Shown in pieces: positions 36,766 through 44,002 of a stretch of 64,000 nt of DNA. Position 1 is the stretch's first letter, and every line of letters begins with the position of its first letter. Below the pieces are notes generated by a model. That model worked only from the letters and a program-made list of their open reading frames with translations, was not told the origin of the DNA and did no database searches. The DNA lies in the NCBI GenBank assembly GCA_002862125.1, contig PHSP01000004.1, positions 232,935-296,934 of the forward strand, written 5' to 3'. The position numbers and the translations under genes were made by a program. Source of the DNA: Methylobacter sp. KS41. GTDB taxonomy: Bacteria > Pseudomonadota > Gammaproteobacteria > Methylococcales > Methylomonadaceae.

Positions 36766-37500
36766 TTAAGCAGTCTTCTTGTAGAATTCCCGTTCAAATT
36801 CCAGCGGGGATTGGTAGCTTAATGTTGAATGCATTCGTTTGCCATTATAAAACGCCAAATAATCAATAATACTCAACTTTGCCGCCTCTTTAGTTTTGAA
36901 TTTTTCGTAGTTTAGTTGCTCATGTTTTAAGCTTCGAAATAATCGCTCTGTCGGCGCATTATCCCAACAATCACCTTTACGGCTCATACTCTGTTGCATC
37001 TTCATTATCCCCAAATGACTTCGGTATTCATGGCTGGCATATTGGCTGCCCCGATCCGAATGATGCACCAGGCCTGGCTCAGGTTTTCGCCGCCAAAACG
37101 CCATTTGTAAGGCATTAACACACAGTGAGGTGCGCATGTGATCTGCAATGGACCAGCCCAGCACTTGCCTGGAAAATAAATCAATAACAATCGCGACGTA
37201 GAGCCAGCCTTCAAGGGTCCGGACGTAAGTCGTCCAAACCTTATTGGGCGCAGCGACATCAAACTGTCTGTTCAATAGATTGGGAGAAATCGTCTCATTA
37301 TGATCGCTGTCTGTAGTCACTTTGAAGCGTTTTGGGTAGCGTGGCTTCAAGCCCAATTTTTTCATCAATTGCCTCGCTTTATAGCGCCCGACCTGAATAT
37401 CTTCTTTTATAAAGGCTTCCGATAAACGGCGAGAACCCTAAACGTTCTTGTTTTCTTCAAATAGCTCAATCGCCTTAGCCTCAAGCTGTTTTTGCAGTAT
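36766..37500 (-). pseudogene. IS3-family orfB (transposase), interrupted by a stop
   Basis: The main frame contains a complete rve core: D in WTTYVRTLEGWLYVAIVIDL region, D in LVHHSDRGSQYASHEY, and E in WDNAPTERLFRSLKHE, ending FNGK-like YLAFYNGKRMHSTLSYQSP. Upstream, a TAG (complement 37438-37440) replaces the Tyr of the expected NVYGSRRLSEAF segment, so the helical N-terminal part is cut off. A downstream ATG at 37368 yields only a partial protein. Confidence 0.85.
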
Positions 37501-37621
37501 TTTTTGTCAGTATCTTCAGGTGTTTTCGCCCACGCATAAAAGGCACTGGTACTAACCTGCATCACTTTACATAGCACGGTAACTGGAAAAGTCTTCTGTT
37601 GCTCTCGAATAAAACCGTATT

Positions 37622-37955
37622 TTATTGGAGTTCTTTCGCAAAGCCTGTGCTGAGCTTGCCGAAGGGAAGACTGCGGCCTTTTTTAATATTTCGCGCTCCA
37701 TCCGCAACTGTTCAACTTCTTTACGTAACCGCGTTAACTCACCTTGATCAGTCAAATTCAAAACGCGGTTCTTGGCCGCCGATGGTGATATCGATCCTTG
37801 TTCGGCTCTCACCCATCGCCCAATAGCGCTAAGAGAAATGCCTGGATTATCGGCTGCTTGCTTGTGCGTATAGCCTTTTCATTTACTAACTTGGCTGCAT
37901 CTTGTTTAAATTCAATCGTGTAATTGGGCCGTTTTTGTTTAGTTTGATTACTCAT
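37622..37955 (-). pseudogene. IS3-family orfA, frameshifted and carrying a 23-bp insertion
   Basis: The start MSNQTKQKRPNYTIEFKQDA (ATG complement 37953-37955, AGAGGTGA upstream) is the typical IS3 orfA N-terminus. One G is missing in the NEKGYTHKQAA region near 37880, causing a frameshift; the true frame resumes as IGRWVRAEQGSI. Near the end a 23-bp sequence (37643-37665) interrupts the KKAAVFFAKELQ region. Removing it in silico restores the expected end and stop. Confidence 0.85.
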
Positions 37956-38023
37956 GTTCACCTCTGTTGACATTATAAAGCTGTCTTTAGAAGTGTCCTG
38001 TTTAATTAAACCATTTCAATGGT

Positions 38024-40074: not shown

Positions 40075-41013
40075 TTACAACTGATTGATGAGTTGCAACT
40101 CCTGCGGATAAGGCGACATATAATAAGACTCTTCTATATAAGGATCGGGGGATTTACGGAAATGATGTTTAAGCAGCGTCAACGGTACAATCAGCGGTAT
40201 TTCACCGCTACGGTAACGCTCGATAATTTCGCTCAGTTCGGCCTTATCATCGGCGCTTAACTCTTTTTTCAAGTAGCCCTGAATATGTTGCAACACATTA
40301 ACATGACTACGACGGCTGACCACTGTTTTAAGAGTGTTCATGAGCTGCAATATATAATCCCCGGCAACCTGCAAAAGATTATCCTTGGTTAAACCCGCTA
40401 ATAATTGCCCCATCTCGCGGTAATCGGCATGACTCATAATGATCAGTTTATGGCGGGCATGAAAAAGCATTAGCCTTTGCACCGTAAGGCCTTCCGCCAG
40501 CAACTGTTTCCAGCGGTAGAGAACGTAAACACGCTGGATAAAATTCTCGCGTAATCCCGGATCGCCCAGACGGCCTTCTTCTTCAACCGGCAATAGCGGG
40601 TTATTGCGCATCATCTCCTGCGCGTAGATGCCGAAACCATTCCGGTGCGGCTGATCACCCGTGAAAACCTTGACTCGCTCCATCCCGCAACTGGGGGAAT
40701 CCTTTTTTAAAATATAACCGCATAATCCGGCATGGCGCTCTTTTTGTTGCTCGGCATAAGCACGTAAACGGTCGGTCACATCCAGCTGTGGATCTTTTAT
40801 TCCCACACTGCGTATTGCATTACCGGTTTTTACCAGTCGAATGGCAGGCCGGGGTATGCCTAAACCAATGGCCACTTCCGGACAGAAAGGATGAAATTCA
40901 AAATATTCGCTGAGCGTTCCGGCAATGTAGGCATCGCGTTTGTGTCCGCCATCAAAACGCACCTGTTCGCCGAGTAAACAACTGCTAATGCCTATAGGAA
41001 TTTTTTTCATCAT
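40075..41013 (-). CDS. DUF523 and DUF1722 (YbgA-like) two-domain protein
   Basis: Residues 1 to about 155 are DUF523, with Cys residues in GISSCLLGEQVRFDGGHKRD and KKDSPSCGMERVKV that suggest an Fe-S or metal site. Residues 190-300 are DUF1722 (LMLFHARHKLIIMSHADYRE and YLKKELSADDKAEL). This fusion is widespread and often lies next to photolyase genes; phrB is 3 kb away here, now separated by the accessory islet. Function is unproven. Confidence 0.88.
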   Translation of the reverse strand: MMKKIPIGISSCLLGEQVRFDGGHKRDAYIAGTLSEYFEFHPFCPEVAIGLGIPRPAIRLVKTGNAIRSVGIKDPQLDVTDRLRAYAEQQKERHAGLCGYILKKDSPSCGMERVKVFTGDQPHRNGFGIYAQEMMRNNPLLPVEEEGRLGDPGLRENFIQRVYVLYRWKQLLAEGLTVQRLMLFHARHKLIIMSHADYREMGQLLAGLTKDNLLQVAGDYILQLMNTLKTVVSRRSHVNVLQHIQGYLKKELSADDKAELSEIIERYRSGEIPLIVPLTLLKHHFRKSPDPYIEESYYMSPYPQELQLINQL

Positions 41014-41287
41014 ATCTCGATAGGGATTCAGGTTTTTTGCATCGCTGTTTTAGTTGTCATGCAGTCGAGGCAAGAAATATTCATATCGTCTAAGTGTATC
41101 GGTTTTGCTGGCTTTTTCAATTTTTAATGACAGCTATGTCCGTGATCAATGTTTAGCGGCGTTTCAGTTTTGTGTGGGATGATTTCAGCTCGTTGGGCAC
41201 CATAGCTAATTGCGCAGCAACAAAGCCAAACATGCTGCGCAATAAGGCTGGCCTCGTACACCATGGATTGCTACTTACCGCGTTAAG

Positions 41288-41313
41288 GGGACTGCGAGCT
41301 TTTGCGCAGTCCC
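41288..41313 (-). terminator. Strong hairpin after the phage-like gene
   Basis: GGGACTGCG and CGCAGTCCC form a perfect 9-bp stem, 15-40 bp after the stop of the 41328-41711 gene. There is no clear U-tract, so termination is likely but not certain. A related hairpin precedes the gene at 41752-41773. Confidence 0.5.
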
Positions 41314-41327
41314 ACTTGAGCGTAGGG

Positions 41328-41711
41328 CTATGCGTCTTCCAGCAAGACAAGGTAATACTTCTCTTCTTGAAGTTGCTCAAGATTTAGACTTTCCAAAATA
41401 TTGTCGGGTTTGATGTCGTAGCCCTTAGACCTGAAAAAGTCGGCATGGTCCGAGGGGATTTTGATACCACTTGAACCGTCATGGCCACTGCCGCTTACGT
41501 TTACCGAGTACAACTCGTTGCCGCCACCATTAGCCTTTGCATAGACATGCGAATGCCACTGGGTTTTTGTGTTTGTGTTAGCAGCGTCCTGTCTGTAGGA
41601 GCTGGTCGTGCCGGGAATTTGCTTATAAACCTCGTGCTCAAAGAGGTCGGTGAGCTTCGATACGGCTTCTTCTTTGCTGCTTTCTGCCAAGTACTGTTTG
41701 AACGTTTTCAT
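41328..41711 (-). CDS. Phage-like hypothetical protein
   Basis: The 127-residue product starts MKTFKQYLAESSKEEAV, an N-terminus common in structural and accessory proteins of T4-like phages. The rest (YSVNVSGSGHDGSSGIKIPS, DHADFFRSKGYDIKPDN) has no recognised domain. GGAG precedes the ATG with good spacing. It is the distal gene of the islet and is flanked on both sides by related hairpins, which resembles a mobile cassette. Confidence 0.6.
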   Translation of the reverse strand: MKTFKQYLAESSKEEAVSKLTDLFEHEVYKQIPGTTSSYRQDAANTNTKTQWHSHVYAKANGGGNELYSVNVSGSGHDGSSGIKIPSDHADFFRSKGYDIKPDNILESLNLEQLQEEKYYLVLLEDA

Positions 41712-41751
41712 GGGCTCTCCGGGCTATGAGATGCATGACGTAAAAGCAAGA

Positions 41752-41773
41752 GGCTGTGCACTTTTGCGCAGTC
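41752..41773 (-). repeat. Hairpin preceding the phage-like gene
   Basis: GGCTGTGC and GCGCAGTC pair over eight positions (two G-U) around ACTTTT. The sequence shares the core CTTTTGCGCAGTC with the hairpin at 41288-41313, making the two a flanking pair. Confidence 0.45.
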
Positions 41774-41824
41774 TCGCCTGACTCCCGGGTTAGCGCTGTC
41801 AGCCAGCAGCCAACACAATAAAAC

Positions 41825-41930
41825 TGGTGCGGAGGGAAGGAATCGAACCTTCCACGTTCACTCTTAGCAGGCAACACGGTCTATACAAGTTTTTCTCTCA
41901 TTTGGGTTGGAATTTCCACCAGGCTCCGCA
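41825..41930 (-). other. tRNA-like fragment with T-arm and CCA end
   Basis: On the minus strand a T-arm (GAAGG TTCGATT CCTTC) is followed by CCTCCGCACCA, like the 3' end of a tRNA gene. CTGCTAA, the anticodon-loop sequence of tRNA-Ser(GCU), occurs upstream. TGCGGAG 106 bases away can pair with CTCCGCA, but the D-arm and anticodon stem do not fold and the span is too long. It is probably a decayed tRNA or an attachment-site relic. Confidence 0.35.
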
Positions 41931-42084
41931 GGAACGCTGTTCCGCACCAAATACATGCCACAAAACCAAAAATAACAGCGTTTAAGTTTTTCATAGCTAC
42001 CCCCATAACGGTTAATACTGCACCCACAACGGAGACGGAAATTGCCAACCCAAACGAGATTGCAACTTGTACTTCAATATGCAC
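41881..42084 (-). CDS. Small two-helix membrane protein
   Basis: The 67-residue product starts with GTG (complement 42082-42084), with AGAAG upstream. It has two predicted membrane helices (about 8-30 and 35-52: FGLAISVSVVGAVLTVMGVA and AVIFGFVACIWCGTAFL) and a basic tail. Small membrane proteins are often partners of conflict systems, and this one lies directly downstream of the DUF4062 gene in the same direction. Its 3' part overlaps the tRNA-like fragment, which lowers confidence. Confidence 0.45.
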   Translation of the reverse strand: MHIEVQVAISFGLAISVSVVGAVLTVMGVAMKNLNAVIFGFVACIWCGTAFLRSLVEIPTQMREKLV

Positions 42085-42125
42085 CTGTACTTCTAAGCCT
42101 GTTTGTCAGCCACAACTTTAATGTA

Positions 42126-42174
42126 GCTCAAACGCCGCATTCAGCGGCTTGTCCGCTGCAATGTTTTGTTAGCC
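42126..42174 (-). repeat. attC-like palindromic spacer between DUF4062 and the small membrane gene
   Basis: On the minus strand the order is GGCTAAC, CAGCGGAC, GCCGCTGAA, GCGGCGTTTGAGC. CAGCGG and CCGCTG form a 6-bp stem with a 5-base loop. This is the layout of an integron attC site (box, stem, stem, GCGTT box), but the outer boxes deviate from RYYYAAC and GTTRRRY. The first box overlaps the stop codon of the DUF4062 gene. Confidence 0.35.
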
Positions 42175-43200
42175 ATTATCTGATTCTATGGCTCGTAGCC
42201 TGTTCATAACACTGTCGCCGAAGGGAGTTAAAGTCCAGTACGTTTTCGTATCTTTTACAGAACGATTTTTATCATTTTTACTAATCAAGCCAAGCGCCCT
42301 CAATTGAACTTTAATCGTTTGAAAGTCTTCATCGCTAATAGAAAAATTATGAAAGCTATGCCCTTTTCCTTCCTTACTTTCTTTTAATTCAGGATCAGCG
42401 ACTCTTTTGATCAATATATCTAGGGAGTTTCTTAGCTGTAGATCGCTTGCCTCGTGAATCATTAACGGAGAAATCTGATAGAAAATATCATCCCATGTCA
42501 CATCGACAGAAGGCTTCCAGCTGTATTGCTCGTGATTTTTTGTTGAGATACACGTGTAGGTAATTGAGAACACTTTGTCTCCCTGGGCTAACTTTTCAGT
42601 GCCAGGCGGTGCTTGTGTTCTAGCTTTGTCCAACTTTGCTACCAAACTCTCAATTTGTTTTCTTAGTTCTAATATTTCGAGTGATGCTTCTTGACTGGGT
42701 ACAAGATCGCCTCGAACCCATCCCACACCAGGATGCTTTTTCTGAAGCATGATCAAACTACGACTTACAACTGATCCTAGCTCGGCAGGAGTCTCCCAAA
42801 ACTTACACATTTTACCTTGTGCAAGCTCTCTAAACTCTTTGAATTTCTTTTGTCCTTCCTCAGTTTTTTCGGTATCTTTCTTCGGTAGCGAATCTGGGTC
42901 CTTATGCAGAAATGCAATAATGGGTTTACCTGTTTGTAGCGCGTAACGATATTCCATTTCAGTGTAACTAATACCATCTGTACTTGTTGAACCATAACGT
43001 CCTCCAAGAATAAGTATGTAATAGTCACACTCATCAATCACTCCTGTTATTAGGCTCCATTGATCTTCATCTGCCGCTGGAAATAGCTCCATTCCGGAAG
43101 GAATACAGTCCAATTCCAAAAGAGCGTGAATAACCTCTTGCCGTTCAATTCTGAGATCTTCATAAGTTGAACTCACAAATACCTGATACTTTTTTTCCAT
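42169..43200 (-). CDS. DUF4062-domain protein
   Basis: The 343 residues begin with a DUF4062 domain: VFVSSTYEDLRIERQEVIHA (about 8-27), YYILILGGRYGSTSTDGISY (about 60-79) and TEMEYRYALQTGKPIIAFLH. DUF4062 has a TIR/nucleotide-hydrolase-like fold and often tops large STAND NTPases in predicted anti-phage systems; here it is stand-alone. A coiled-coil lies at about 168-195 and a winged-helix-like end follows (VQLRALGLISKNDK, TKTYWTLTPFGDSVMNRL). AGGAG lies 12 bases before the ATG. The role in defence is inferred, not shown. Confidence 0.8.
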   Translation of the reverse strand: MEKKYQVFVSSTYEDLRIERQEVIHALLELDCIPSGMELFPAADEDQWSLITGVIDECDYYILILGGRYGSTSTDGISYTEMEYRYALQTGKPIIAFLHKDPDSLPKKDTEKTEEGQKKFKEFRELAQGKMCKFWETPAELGSVVSRSLIMLQKKHPGVGWVRGDLVPSQEASLEILELRKQIESLVAKLDKARTQAPPGTEKLAQGDKVFSITYTCISTKNHEQYSWKPSVDVTWDDIFYQISPLMIHEASDLQLRNSLDILIKRVADPELKESKEGKGHSFHNFSISDEDFQTIKVQLRALGLISKNDKNRSVKDTKTYWTLTPFGDSVMNRLRAIESDNG

Positions 43201-43564
43201 TCGGTTTGCAGCACTCCTTTAGATGGCTAACTATATAGGCGTTAAACATTGCGTCATTTGTTTGTATACAACCTTAAAAAAATTAAAAATCATTGTTATT
43301 TCATTCGGTTGTATGAATTTAGCACATCCTAAAAAAATTTAGGTAGCACCACCTGAAAGTATGGGTAATTTAATCCATAAATATTCACGGCAAACAATGG
43401 TAACCCTAAACCCTAGCCGCCGCAAACGCCCTTATCTTCTCAACTAAAAAAATCATTATTTACCTCTGTGTCGCGAAAGTCATGCAATAATTTGACTCTT
43501 CCGGAATTTATGTAAAATTGGGTAAACCTTTTTTATTCCAGAATTTTATGCTCTACTACCCCTT
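43201..43564. other. AT-rich divergent intergenic region
   Basis: It separates the minus-strand DUF4062 gene from the plus-strand DUF1499 gene. It contains GGCGTTAAAC at 43238, a perfect 10-bp palindrome TTGTATACAA near 43260, and a promoter candidate for the DUF1499 gene. No further gene is seen. Confidence 0.5.
43492..43518 (+). promoter_or_regulatory. Candidate promoter of the DUF1499 gene
   Basis: TTGACT (43492-43497) and TAAAAT (43513-43518) are good boxes, but the 15-bp spacing is short. The gene starts 47 bp downstream. Confidence 0.4.
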
Positions 43565-44002
43565 ATGACATTTAAAATCATTTTTTATATTATTGTTATG
43601 ACACTCAGTACAGCAAACCAGGCGAACTCAGCATCAGAAAAAAAACTGCCGCCTTGCCGTGATAGCCCGAACTGTGTTTCCAGTCAGGCGCAAGACGCCA
43701 AGCATTTCATTGAACCTTTCAAAATCAGCGGCAGCCCTGAAGAAGCATGGAAGGCATTGAAAAAAGCCATTGACAACCATAGCCGCATGGTTATTACTCA
43801 TGAAACCCCTGATACGCTTCATGCAGAAGCAACCAGCCTGGTTTTCGGCTTTGTTGACGATATTAACGCAATTCTTGATACTGACAAGAATATCATCCAG
43901 ATCCGCTCAGCGTCACGCACGGGTCATAGCGATTTCGGAGTTAATCGCAAGCGTATAGAAGCACTACGTTCGCAGCTGCAAAAAGCTCATGTTATAAATT
44001 GA
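43565..44002 (+). CDS. DUF1499 exported protein
   Basis: The 145 residues have a signal peptide (cleaved near ANSASE) and the DUF1499 core: CRDSPNCVSSQAQDAKHFIE, VFGFVDDINAILD and IQIRSASRTGHSDFGVNRKR. DUF1499 proteins are small envelope proteins of unknown function, often near photolyase or lipid genes. The stop lies 54 bases before the photolyase start, so the two are probably co-transcribed. Confidence 0.85.
   Translation: MTFKIIFYIIVMTLSTANQANSASEKKLPPCRDSPNCVSSQAQDAKHFIEPFKISGSPEEAWKALKKAIDNHSRMVITHETPDTLHAEATSLVFGFVDDINAILDTDKNIIQIRSASRTGHSDFGVNRKRIEALRSQLQKAHVIN

What the first reader, a model, noticed from the sequence alone, without database searches (positions are those of the whole stretch)
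41147..43251. Accessory islet with a DUF4062 protein and cassette-like spacers
Three unrelated minus-strand genes (phage-like 127 aa, two-helix membrane protein, DUF4062 protein) sit between two core genes that are often neighbours elsewhere (DUF523/DUF1722 and phrB). The spacers are palindromic. CAATGTTT-type sequences occur at both borders, in inverted orientation, and in the middle spacer, and three GGCGTT boxes lie at 41158, 42135 and 43238. DUF4062 is known from predicted anti-phage NTPases, so a mobile defence cassette is a plausible reading.
Basis: partly seen in the sequence, partly recalled or inferred. Interest (0 to 1): 0.6.

Follow-up and report, generated by a model that had tools for sequence, protein, structure and literature searches.

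The report
Integrase-less integron array carrying phage-defence gene
The islet is a small integron cassette array that has a worn-down insertion site but no integrase gene of its own; its first cassette carries a relative of a newly described anti-phage enzyme, and related bacteria hold many similar integrase-less insertion sites loaded with different cassettes.

Summary
On the minus strand it holds a truncated attI-type leader (43231-43333) and three cassettes: DUF4062 protein, 67-aa membrane protein, 127-aa orphan. Cassette 1 is clean: its R'' (GGCTAAC) pairs 7/7 with the R' rebuilt on circularisation. The attC sites of cassettes 2 and 3 are decayed but match attC-like sites elsewhere in the genus. 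The DUF4062 protein is a full-length homologue of KpSwz, the Swarozyc portal-sensing NADase (PDB 10wc, E 1.8e-90; PMC13174449); four of 46 tested homologues also pass the cassette test. The unexpected result is the leader: it is the attI of an IntI family (intI starts about 121 bp away in four loci), yet 33 of 44 examined copies, including this genome's four strong ones, lack intI. Two orthologous pairs of such sites are continuous upstream for 1.0 and 2.5 kb and carry different cassettes from G^TT onward, which suggests exchange in trans. The window copy continues 100 bp into sequence shared with a site behind sdhE, so the site itself seems to have moved. No function was tested.

The parts
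41138..43473 (.). Whole foreign segment between DUF523/DUF1722 and DUF1499 genes
   Evidence: Homology with the nearest relative G007 ends at 41137 and resumes at about 43474 (blastn plus reading of the printed flanks)
43231..43333 (-). attI-type leader, truncated: about 14 nt including the L box (GTCTAAT) missing; crossover G^TT between 43231 and 43230
   Evidence: Model R1, built without the window, 65.1 bits, E 4.4e-19, positions 2-103 of 122
43334..43449 (-). Further leader flank shared with integrase-less site alpha; 43406-43449 reads FLVEKIRAFAAARV*, resembling the SdhE C-terminus
   Evidence: 75-76% DNA identity to L082/L083 over 43274-43449; translation; the gene at that site matches Sdh5/SdhE, PF03937, 57 bits; as a 15-aa protein match alone it is weak (60%, E 1.1)
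42133..43230 (-). Cassette 1 (TTAGCC ... attC_A)
   Evidence: R''/R' 7 of 7 after circularisation; 4 of 46 homologues also 7/7; 5 of 3000 random anchors
42169..43200 (-). DUF4062 (Swarozyc-like TIR-type NADase) gene, 343 aa
   Evidence: PF13271 101 bits; KpSwz 10wc E 1.8e-90 over 1-340; E81 in 34 of 37, E83 in 37 of 37 aligned sequences
42133..42174 (-). attC_A: GGCTAAC-aaaa-CATTGCAGCGG-acaag-CCGCTGAATG-cggc-G, with extrahelical G in L''
   Evidence: Fold of the circular form -22.5 kcal/mol with RNA, -14.0 with DNA parameters; core pattern in 6 of 101 genomes, 0 backwards-control matches
41739..42132 (-). Cassette 2: 67-aa two-helix membrane protein plus tRNA-like 3' end
   Evidence: Boundaries from attC_A and attC_C; left R' GTTTGAG against R'' CGCTAAC only 5 of 7 by eye (sequences); fails the strict circularisation test
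41881..42084 (-). 67-aa ORF (GTG start); membrane protein by reading only
   Evidence: no Pfam family above cut-off
41825..41930 (-). tRNA-like element: TGCGGAG ... GGTTCGATTCC ... CTCCGCA CCA
   Evidence: Read from sequence; not called by ARAGORN at default or Rfam at gathering score
41739..41795 (-). attC_C (decayed: R' G^TCATGC)
   Evidence: 78% over 50 nt to an attC-like site at own C1:552739, L099 (E 1.8e-4); read side by side
41279..41738 (-). Cassette 3: 127-aa protein of unknown function
   Evidence: R'' GCATAGC / left R' GTCATGC, each one step from a perfect GCATAAC/GTTATGC pair (by eye); fails the strict test
41328..41711 (-). 127-aa ORF, no family
   Evidence: a partial DNA homologue at G019:C1:4675952, 77% over 191 nt
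41279..41333 (-). attC_B (decayed: R' G^GTAAGT)
   Evidence: Matches L084/L096, L087, L099 at 78-86%, E 1e-6 to 1e-7
41138..41278 (.). Tail: REP-like palindrome 41206-41246 and left border CAATGTTTAGCGGCGTT (41147-41163 on +)
   Evidence: origin of the left border unresolved

Best explanation
The islet is a short integron cassette array whose insertion site (attI) survives in truncated form without an integrase gene. SHOWN by sequence: the attI-type leader, three attC-type sites in one orientation (one clean, two decayed), and a first cassette encoding a full-length Swarozyc-type DUF4062 protein. INFERRED: (1) cassettes were captured at G^TT of this attI by an IntI acting from elsewhere (this genome has one intact IntI gene, 60% identical to a cognate one, and the attI family is loaded with differing cassettes at sites without intI); (2) the attI segment itself was copied here from a site downstream of sdhE, since it continues into sequence shared with that site, including what looks like the last codons of sdhE; (3) loss of the L box and decay of two attC sites have left the array largely fixed; (4) the DUF4062 protein binds a phage structural protein (a portal in KpSwz), oligomerises, hydrolyses NAD+ and aborts the infection. 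The 67-aa and 127-aa cassettes are passengers of unknown function.
For: Leader: R1 was built from 13 copies without the window (they had been found with the window as query) and hits one place in the 64-kb window (E 4.4e-19); 25 of 101 genomes have it, all in one family (lower bound: 35 candidates scored per genome); in four loci intI is full length and starts about 121 bp from the crossover; 32 leaders are conserved up to about +6 and unrelated after (-3..+2 are fixed by how they were anchored). Cassette 1: 7/7 R''/R' and stop codon inside R''; attC_A core recurs in 6 of 101 genomes of four families, none for the backwards control. attC_B/attC_C resemble attC-like sites at L084, L087, L099. 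Trans exchange: two pairs of integrase-less sites (G003:C16/G001:C70, 95% over 1042 bp; own C1:1709411/G013:C50, 83% over 2.5 kb) are continuous up to G^TT and differ after it. DUF4062; function by homology with PMC13174449.
Against: The window attI copy lacks its L box, so it may be dead, and cassette 1 may have entered earlier or elsewhere. Cassettes 2 and 3 fail the strict circularisation test; their attC sites rest on similarity to sites that are themselves called attC by eye. No IntegronFinder/HattCI model was available. Among 31 leaders with G^TT, 13 gave a downstream attC candidate with R''/R' pairing of at least 6/7 and duplex energy at most -12, against 6 in the reverse-strand control; with 7/7 pairing, 10 against 1 (the control is impure because attC sites are palindromic). 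A noisy heuristic attC scan showed no excess downstream of leaders in the same orientation (56 same, 65 opposite, 79 upstream) and found nothing in the window; a strict one found nothing in the islet. Three of the five copies behind sdhE are not continuous with the others: the leader lies 191, 192, 278, 598 and 796 bp after sdhE, so these may be separate arrivals. Different cassettes could also arise by homologous recombination between leaders or by deletion. Defence by this protein is inferred from homology only; PADLOC-DB 2.0.0 has no hit.
Confidence: 0.8

Rival explanations
1. The cassettes landed at an ordinary chromosomal secondary site (attG) and formed a CALIN; the resemblance to attI is incidental.
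For: attG insertion is documented in the literature (a citation and a passage in PMC12444791); the window leader lacks the L box, leaving TATAG^TT at the crossover.
Against: The 103-bp leader match has E 4.4e-19 in the window and continues to 43449 with integrase-less site alpha copies, which a random target would not show.
Confidence: 0.07
2. The islet is the remnant of a complete integron that stood here and lost intI in place.
For: Five of 44 examined leaders keep partial intI, so decay of intI does occur.
Against: No intI trace next to the window leader; the flank carries what looks like an sdhE tail, which belongs to site alpha and not to an integron; none of the leader matches listed lies between these flanking genes in a relative, though contig ends and the 35-candidate limit leave gaps.
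Confidence: 0.15
3. Differences between orthologous integrase-less attI sites come from homologous recombination, deletion or separate arrivals, not from IntI acting in trans.
For: No experiment was run; G001 and G013 show no match over the IntI cut-off although both have such sites (G001 is 83% complete); three of five site-alpha copies lie at other distances from sdhE.
Against: In the two continuous pairs homology stops at +3 and +9 from the crossover, and several first cassettes carry an attC matching their own R'.
Confidence: 0.35
4. The DUF4062 protein has a role other than phage defence.
For: DUF4062 also occurs in human proteins, of which only TEP1 among four tested hydrolysed NAD+ (PMC13174449).
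Against: Same full-length architecture as KpSwz, not just the domain; E81 aligned with the KpSwz Glu and present in 34 of 37 sequences; relatives in 23 viral contigs and on plasmids.
Confidence: 0.2

Closest known systems
[quoted passage not shown] IntegronFinder 2.0, PMC9024848, passages read)
   Same: attC-bounded cassettes without a neighbouring intI
   Different: Here the array is headed by an attI-type leader of a recognisable family; [quoted passage not shown]
Shewanella prophage M16-3 CALIN with its own attI (PMC9892861, passages read)
   Same: An integrase-less array headed by an attI
   Different: There the same attI heads both a complete integron and the CALIN of one prophage; here many dispersed chromosomal copies exist, two pairs of them orthologous between genomes
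Delta-attI-type gene cassettes of mobile integrons (PMC12901181, abstract and passages read)
   Same: attI pieces outside their normal place, movable by IntI1
   Different: There a partial attI replaces the attC at a cassette's 3' end; here the leader precedes the cassettes
Swarozyc / KpSwz (PDB 10wc; PMC13174449, parts 1-2 of 6 and passages read)
   Same: Full-length homologue, DUF4062 plus C-terminal auxiliary region, Glu aligned with the catalytic one
   Different: Here encoded by an integron cassette; the words integron and cassette do not occur in that paper's main text
Xanthomonas CALINs at conserved loci (PMC12444791, passages read)
   Same: Integrase-less arrays at conserved chromosomal positions
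   Different: The passages read name no attI at those positions and report more stable arrays after intI loss; here cassettes differ

Membership tests
Integron gene cassette (DUF4062 unit) | Ends at G^TTRRRY; attC whose R'' pairs with the R' formed on circularisation | tested here: met
   GGCTAAC/GTTAGCC 7 of 7; R' is GTTAGCC, so one position departs from RRRY
Integron gene cassette (DUF4062 unit) | Imperfect L''/L' stem with extrahelical base | tested here: met
   CATTGCAGCGG / CCGCTGAATG, G bulged
Integron gene cassette (67-aa and 127-aa units) | R''/R' pairing after circularisation | tested here: not met
   Both fail the strict test; similarity to attC-like sites remains
Complete integron | intI next to attI | tested here: not met
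   No intI within 1.4 kb upstream of the window leader; the intact intI lies on contig C1
CALIN | At least two attC sites without intI nearby | tested here: inconclusive
   One clean and two decayed attC sites by homology; IntegronFinder not available
attI site of this IntI family | Conserved leader between divergent intI and first cassette, crossover at G^TT | tested here: met
   Family level: L150, L171, L175, L177
attI site of this IntI family | Complete L and R boxes in the window copy | tested here: not met
   R1 match ends at model position 103 of 122; GTCTAAT missing
Swarozyc (DUF4062 anti-phage NADase) | DUF4062 TIR-like domain and C-terminal auxiliary region as in KpSwz | tested here: met
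   profile 1-340 to chain 2-323
Swarozyc (DUF4062 anti-phage NADase) | Catalytic Glu (KpSwz E97) | tested here: met
   Window E81 aligns with a KpSwz Glu at chain position about 82; that this is E97 is inferred from the construct numbering
Swarozyc (DUF4062 anti-phage NADase) | Portal-triggered NAD+ hydrolysis and phage protection | not testable with these tools
   none

The most novel reading that the evidence does not exclude
This bacterial family runs a distributed integron: many chromosomal attI sites without an integrase, kept for long periods behind core operons, still swap cassettes under an IntI encoded elsewhere, and can themselves move to new places with a piece of their flank, as in the window. 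Phage-defence genes such as the Swarozyc-type NADase ride in this network.
Probability: 0.36. Interest if true: 0.75.

Novelty: new variant of a known kind. Interest (0 to 1): 0.55.

Why it matters
How integrase-less cassette arrays arise, and whether they are dead, is an open question; attI sites outside class 1 are hard to see with standard tools. A family of integrase-less attI sites, in part orthologous between genomes and loaded with different cassettes, makes it directly testable whether such arrays are fed in trans. It also links a newly described anti-phage NADase to cassette transfer: the window gene and four of 46 tested homologues, from gamma- and zetaproteobacteria and a planctomycete (classes recalled from the organism names), pass the cassette test.

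Tried and rejected
A strict attC pattern scan found nothing in the islet; a looser heuristic was too noisy (56 same-orientation, 65 opposite, 79 upstream hits; none in the window) and was not used as support. A transposon or phage insertion was considered: no target duplication was seen by eye, no transposase ORF was recognised in the islet, the 127-aa and 67-aa proteins have no relatives in the viral contigs, and the 127-aa protein none in phages or plasmids. tRNA reading of 41825-41930: ARAGORN at default finds none; only lowered thresholds give calls; Rfam none at gathering score. Left border as a second, inverted attI: 17 of 23 identity to the right border (0 of 300 resamples), but model R1 does not find it at E up to 1; unresolved. 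Breakpoint of the copied attI segment exactly at a G^TT inside sdhE: possible, but the break cannot be placed to the base. PADLOC and NCBIfam gave nothing above cut-off for the three proteins. Foldseek on the model gave TIR-containing chains with low whole-length TM-scores; the model's pTM is 0.49 although mean pLDDT is 86.7, so the domain arrangement is not trusted.
Full report
WHAT IS THERE. The window is G000:C4:232935-296934 of a 4.74-Mb genome in four contigs; no call named the organism. Between the DUF523/DUF1722 gene (40075-41013) and the DUF1499 gene (43565-44002) lie three minus-strand ORFs of 343, 67 and 127 aa. The nearest relative by this gene, G007 (90% identical protein), is homologous up to 41137 and again from about 43474, so 41138-43473 is foreign. 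In relatives this interval is variable: 277 bp in G028, about 2 kb in G015, about 4-6 kb with other ORFs in several.

CASSETTE 1. On the minus strand the DUF4062 unit begins at G^TTAGCC (43231/43230) and ends in GGCTAAC-aaaa-CATTGCAGCGG-acaag-CCGCTGAATG-cggc-G^TT (42174-42131). In the linear array R'' does not match the following GTTTGAG, but when the unit is closed on itself GGCTAAC pairs 7 of 7 with GTTAGCC; the circular form folds at -22.5 kcal/mol (RNA parameters; -14.0 with DNA parameters) with R and L stems and one bulged G, the linear form does not. The stop codon lies inside R''. A systematic version of this test gave 7/7 for the window, for 4 of 46 homologues (L194 Mariprofundus erugo, L195 a Brocadiaceae MAG, L218 Marinobacter nitratireducens, L219 Alishewanella agri), each with R'' at the same place relative to the stop codon, and for 5 of 3000 random anchors (65 of 3000 at 6/7 or better). 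The 46 were those of the 77 loci that I listed as long matches. The attC_A core occurs with at most two mismatches in 6 of 101 genomes (G000, G040, G058, G068, G069, G092) and never as the backwards control; in the other five the base after GTT is A, as in a complete R'.

CASSETTES 2 AND 3. Both fail the strict test. Their 3' hairpins (attC_C 41795-41739, attC_B 41333-41279) align with attC-like sites in this genome (C1:552739) and, for attC_B, in G012:C76 and G013:C97 at 78-86%; side by side those relatives read CCTAAC or CCCAAC before the stem, and GTTAAGA or GTTAAGC after it in two of three. The window sites carry substitutions in R' and, for attC_B, in R''. I therefore take cassettes 2 and 3 as older, decayed cassettes; this is weaker than for cassette 1. 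The 127-aa protein has a partial DNA relative in G019 (77% over 191 nt) and no family; the 67-aa protein has none above cut-off.

THE LEADER. A DNA search of the islet in 41 genomes (own included; only some candidates per genome are scored) showed that the right border is a dispersed repeat. Thirteen copies, found with the window but excluding it, align over about 122 bp ending ...GTCTAATTATAG^TTAGG. A sequence-only model of these (R1) finds the window copy at 65 bits (43231-43333, the only hit at E up to 1 in 64 kb) and hits 25 of 101 genomes, own included, all in one family; 73 matches in all, six in this genome of which four are strong, 17 in G003 and 9 in G001 (35 candidates scored per genome with strict filters, so these are lower bounds). 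I examined 44 of the 73 (40 fetched regions, L085 and the window), dropped two secondary hits in the same regions, and did not fetch the other 27, some of them strong but many near contig ends (for example G003:C88, C36, C104, G062:C233, G024:C75). Of the 44, four have full-length intI, divergent, starting about 121 bp from the crossover (L150 with one internal TAG, L171, L175, L177), five have partial intI, 33 have none (tblastn, E<0.05, within 1.4 kb), two lie too near a contig end. The four strong copies of this genome are among the 33. So the leader is an attI, and most examined copies are integrase-less. In 32 leaders with TAG^TT/CT, conservation runs to about +6 and then vanishes (the anchor fixes -3 to +2). 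For 31 leaders with G^TT, 10 have a downstream attC whose R'' pairs 7/7 with their R' and whose stem duplex is at most -12 kcal/mol against 1 in the reverse-strand control; at 6/7 or better the numbers are 13 and 6, and the control is impure because attC sites are palindromic. In the window copy about 14 nt including the L box are missing.

INTEGRASE-LESS SITES IN OTHER GENOMES. Two pairs are continuous up to the crossover and differ after it: G003:C16 and G001:C70 (95% over 1042 bp, to +3; the G003 contig ends 120 bp later and G001 has 1.0 kb upstream) and own C1:1709411 and G013:C50 (83% over 2.5 kb, to +9). The first pair belongs to a wider site alpha behind an SdhE gene (PF03937), also found here at C1:76546, in G029:C290 and in G080:C3 (another genus); main upstream blocks of 456-2378 bp match at 78-95% without intI, but the leader lies 191, 192, 278, 598 and 796 bp after sdhE, so the last three may be separate arrivals in the same neighbourhood. 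No downstream protein of at least 150 aa is shared among these loci within 5 kb (E 1e-8). Copies within one genome can share 280-440 bp upstream (G003:C27 and C63; G001:C245, C492, C255), and tandem attI copies 1.8 and 2.2 kb apart occur in G001:C492 and G072:C99. The simplest reading is that integrase-less attI sites persist, are served in trans, and are sometimes duplicated. The window copy shares 100 bp more with G003:C16 and G001:C70 (43334-43449, part of a 176-nt match at 75-76%), where it reads FLVEKIRAFAAARV*, like the SdhE end LVGKIRAFALVKF*, at nearly the same distance from the crossover (-181 against -191 and -192). So it was probably copied from such a site. As a 15-aa match alone this is weak (E 1.1). 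Homologous recombination is not excluded.

IntI. This genome has one intact IntI gene (C1:1028688-1029641, 466 bits, cut-off 265), 60% identical to the cognate IntI of G003; an earlier profile of the leader finds nothing in its surroundings at E up to 1. A fragment of an IntI C-terminus lies at the very start of contig C2.

THE DUF4062 PROTEIN. The 343-aa protein matches DUF4062 (101 bits) and PHROG 15411 over its full length (422 bits, unknown function). Seventy-seven loci in the genome collection (best 65% over the full length) and 23 viral contigs hold relatives; 184 plasmid records match, 8 over at least 80% of its length. A profile of 37 sequences finds KpSwz (PDB 10wc) over its whole length at E 1.8e-90. 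The preprint PMC13174449 (parts 1 and 2 of 6 and passages read) reports that DUF4062 proteins are TIR-like NADases and that KpSwz protects E. coli from phages by portal-triggered NAD+ depletion dependent on E97. Window E81 aligns with a Glu at the matching place of KpSwz and is E in 34 of 37 sequences, Q in 3; E83 is invariant among the 37 but Ala in KpSwz. AlphaFold2 gives mean pLDDT 86.7, pTM 0.49; Foldseek's best matches include TIR-APAZ/SPARTA and SARM1.

NOVELTY. Integrase-less arrays (CALINs) are well known (PMC9024848, PMC12444791, passages). One CALIN with its own attI is reported in a Shewanella prophage (PMC9892861, passages). Partial attI sites at cassette ends are known in mobile integrons and can be moved by IntI1 (PMC12901181, abstract and passages). 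My searches for orphan, solitary, multiple or attI-like sites and for attI with CALIN and for integrons in methanotrophs listed no title or abstract on a dispersed family of integrase-less attI sites; of the 18 papers I looked into passages of four. The library lacks most subscription journals. The attG paper (Nat Microbiol 2024) was seen only as a citation. I file this as a new variant of a known kind.

Noticed in passing
41825-41930 (-): tRNA-like 3' end with CCA and matching 7-nt 5' acceptor strand inside cassette 2; not called by ARAGORN at default or Rfam; its 22-nt 3' part occurs once in the genome at up to two mismatches.
   Followed up: partly
41206-41284: REP-like palindrome resembling repeats near a small ORF on C1 that looks like a REP-associated transposase by recall (L017 11406-12117).
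   Followed up: no
36766-37973 (-): Broken IS-like element: rve integrase core followed by several short ORFs.
   Followed up: no
L019 48-221 (G000:C2 start) and L018 125-853: IntI C-terminal fragment at the contig start (88-94% identical to IntI proteins over 51-57 aa) and a distant tyrosine recombinase with a stop near the start of C4.
   Followed up: partly
L017 10500-14800: attC-like sites beside the intact intI of this genome, for example around 10675-10610 and 13770-13664 on the minus strand, read by eye.
   Followed up: partly
L252 2960-3360: Methylomonas sp. SURF-2 has a truncated DUF4062 gene (100 residues at 76%) that also starts shortly after a CTAG^TTAGAT junction.
   Followed up: partly
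leader core, e.g. L089 near 1590: Palindromic GACGCAATGTTTTACGTC in the leader, some 20-40 bp before the crossover; may be an operator or an IntI-binding repeat.
   Followed up: no
L170 (G072:C99) and L159 (G001:C492): Tandem attI copies with cassettes or other ORFs between them.
   Followed up: partly
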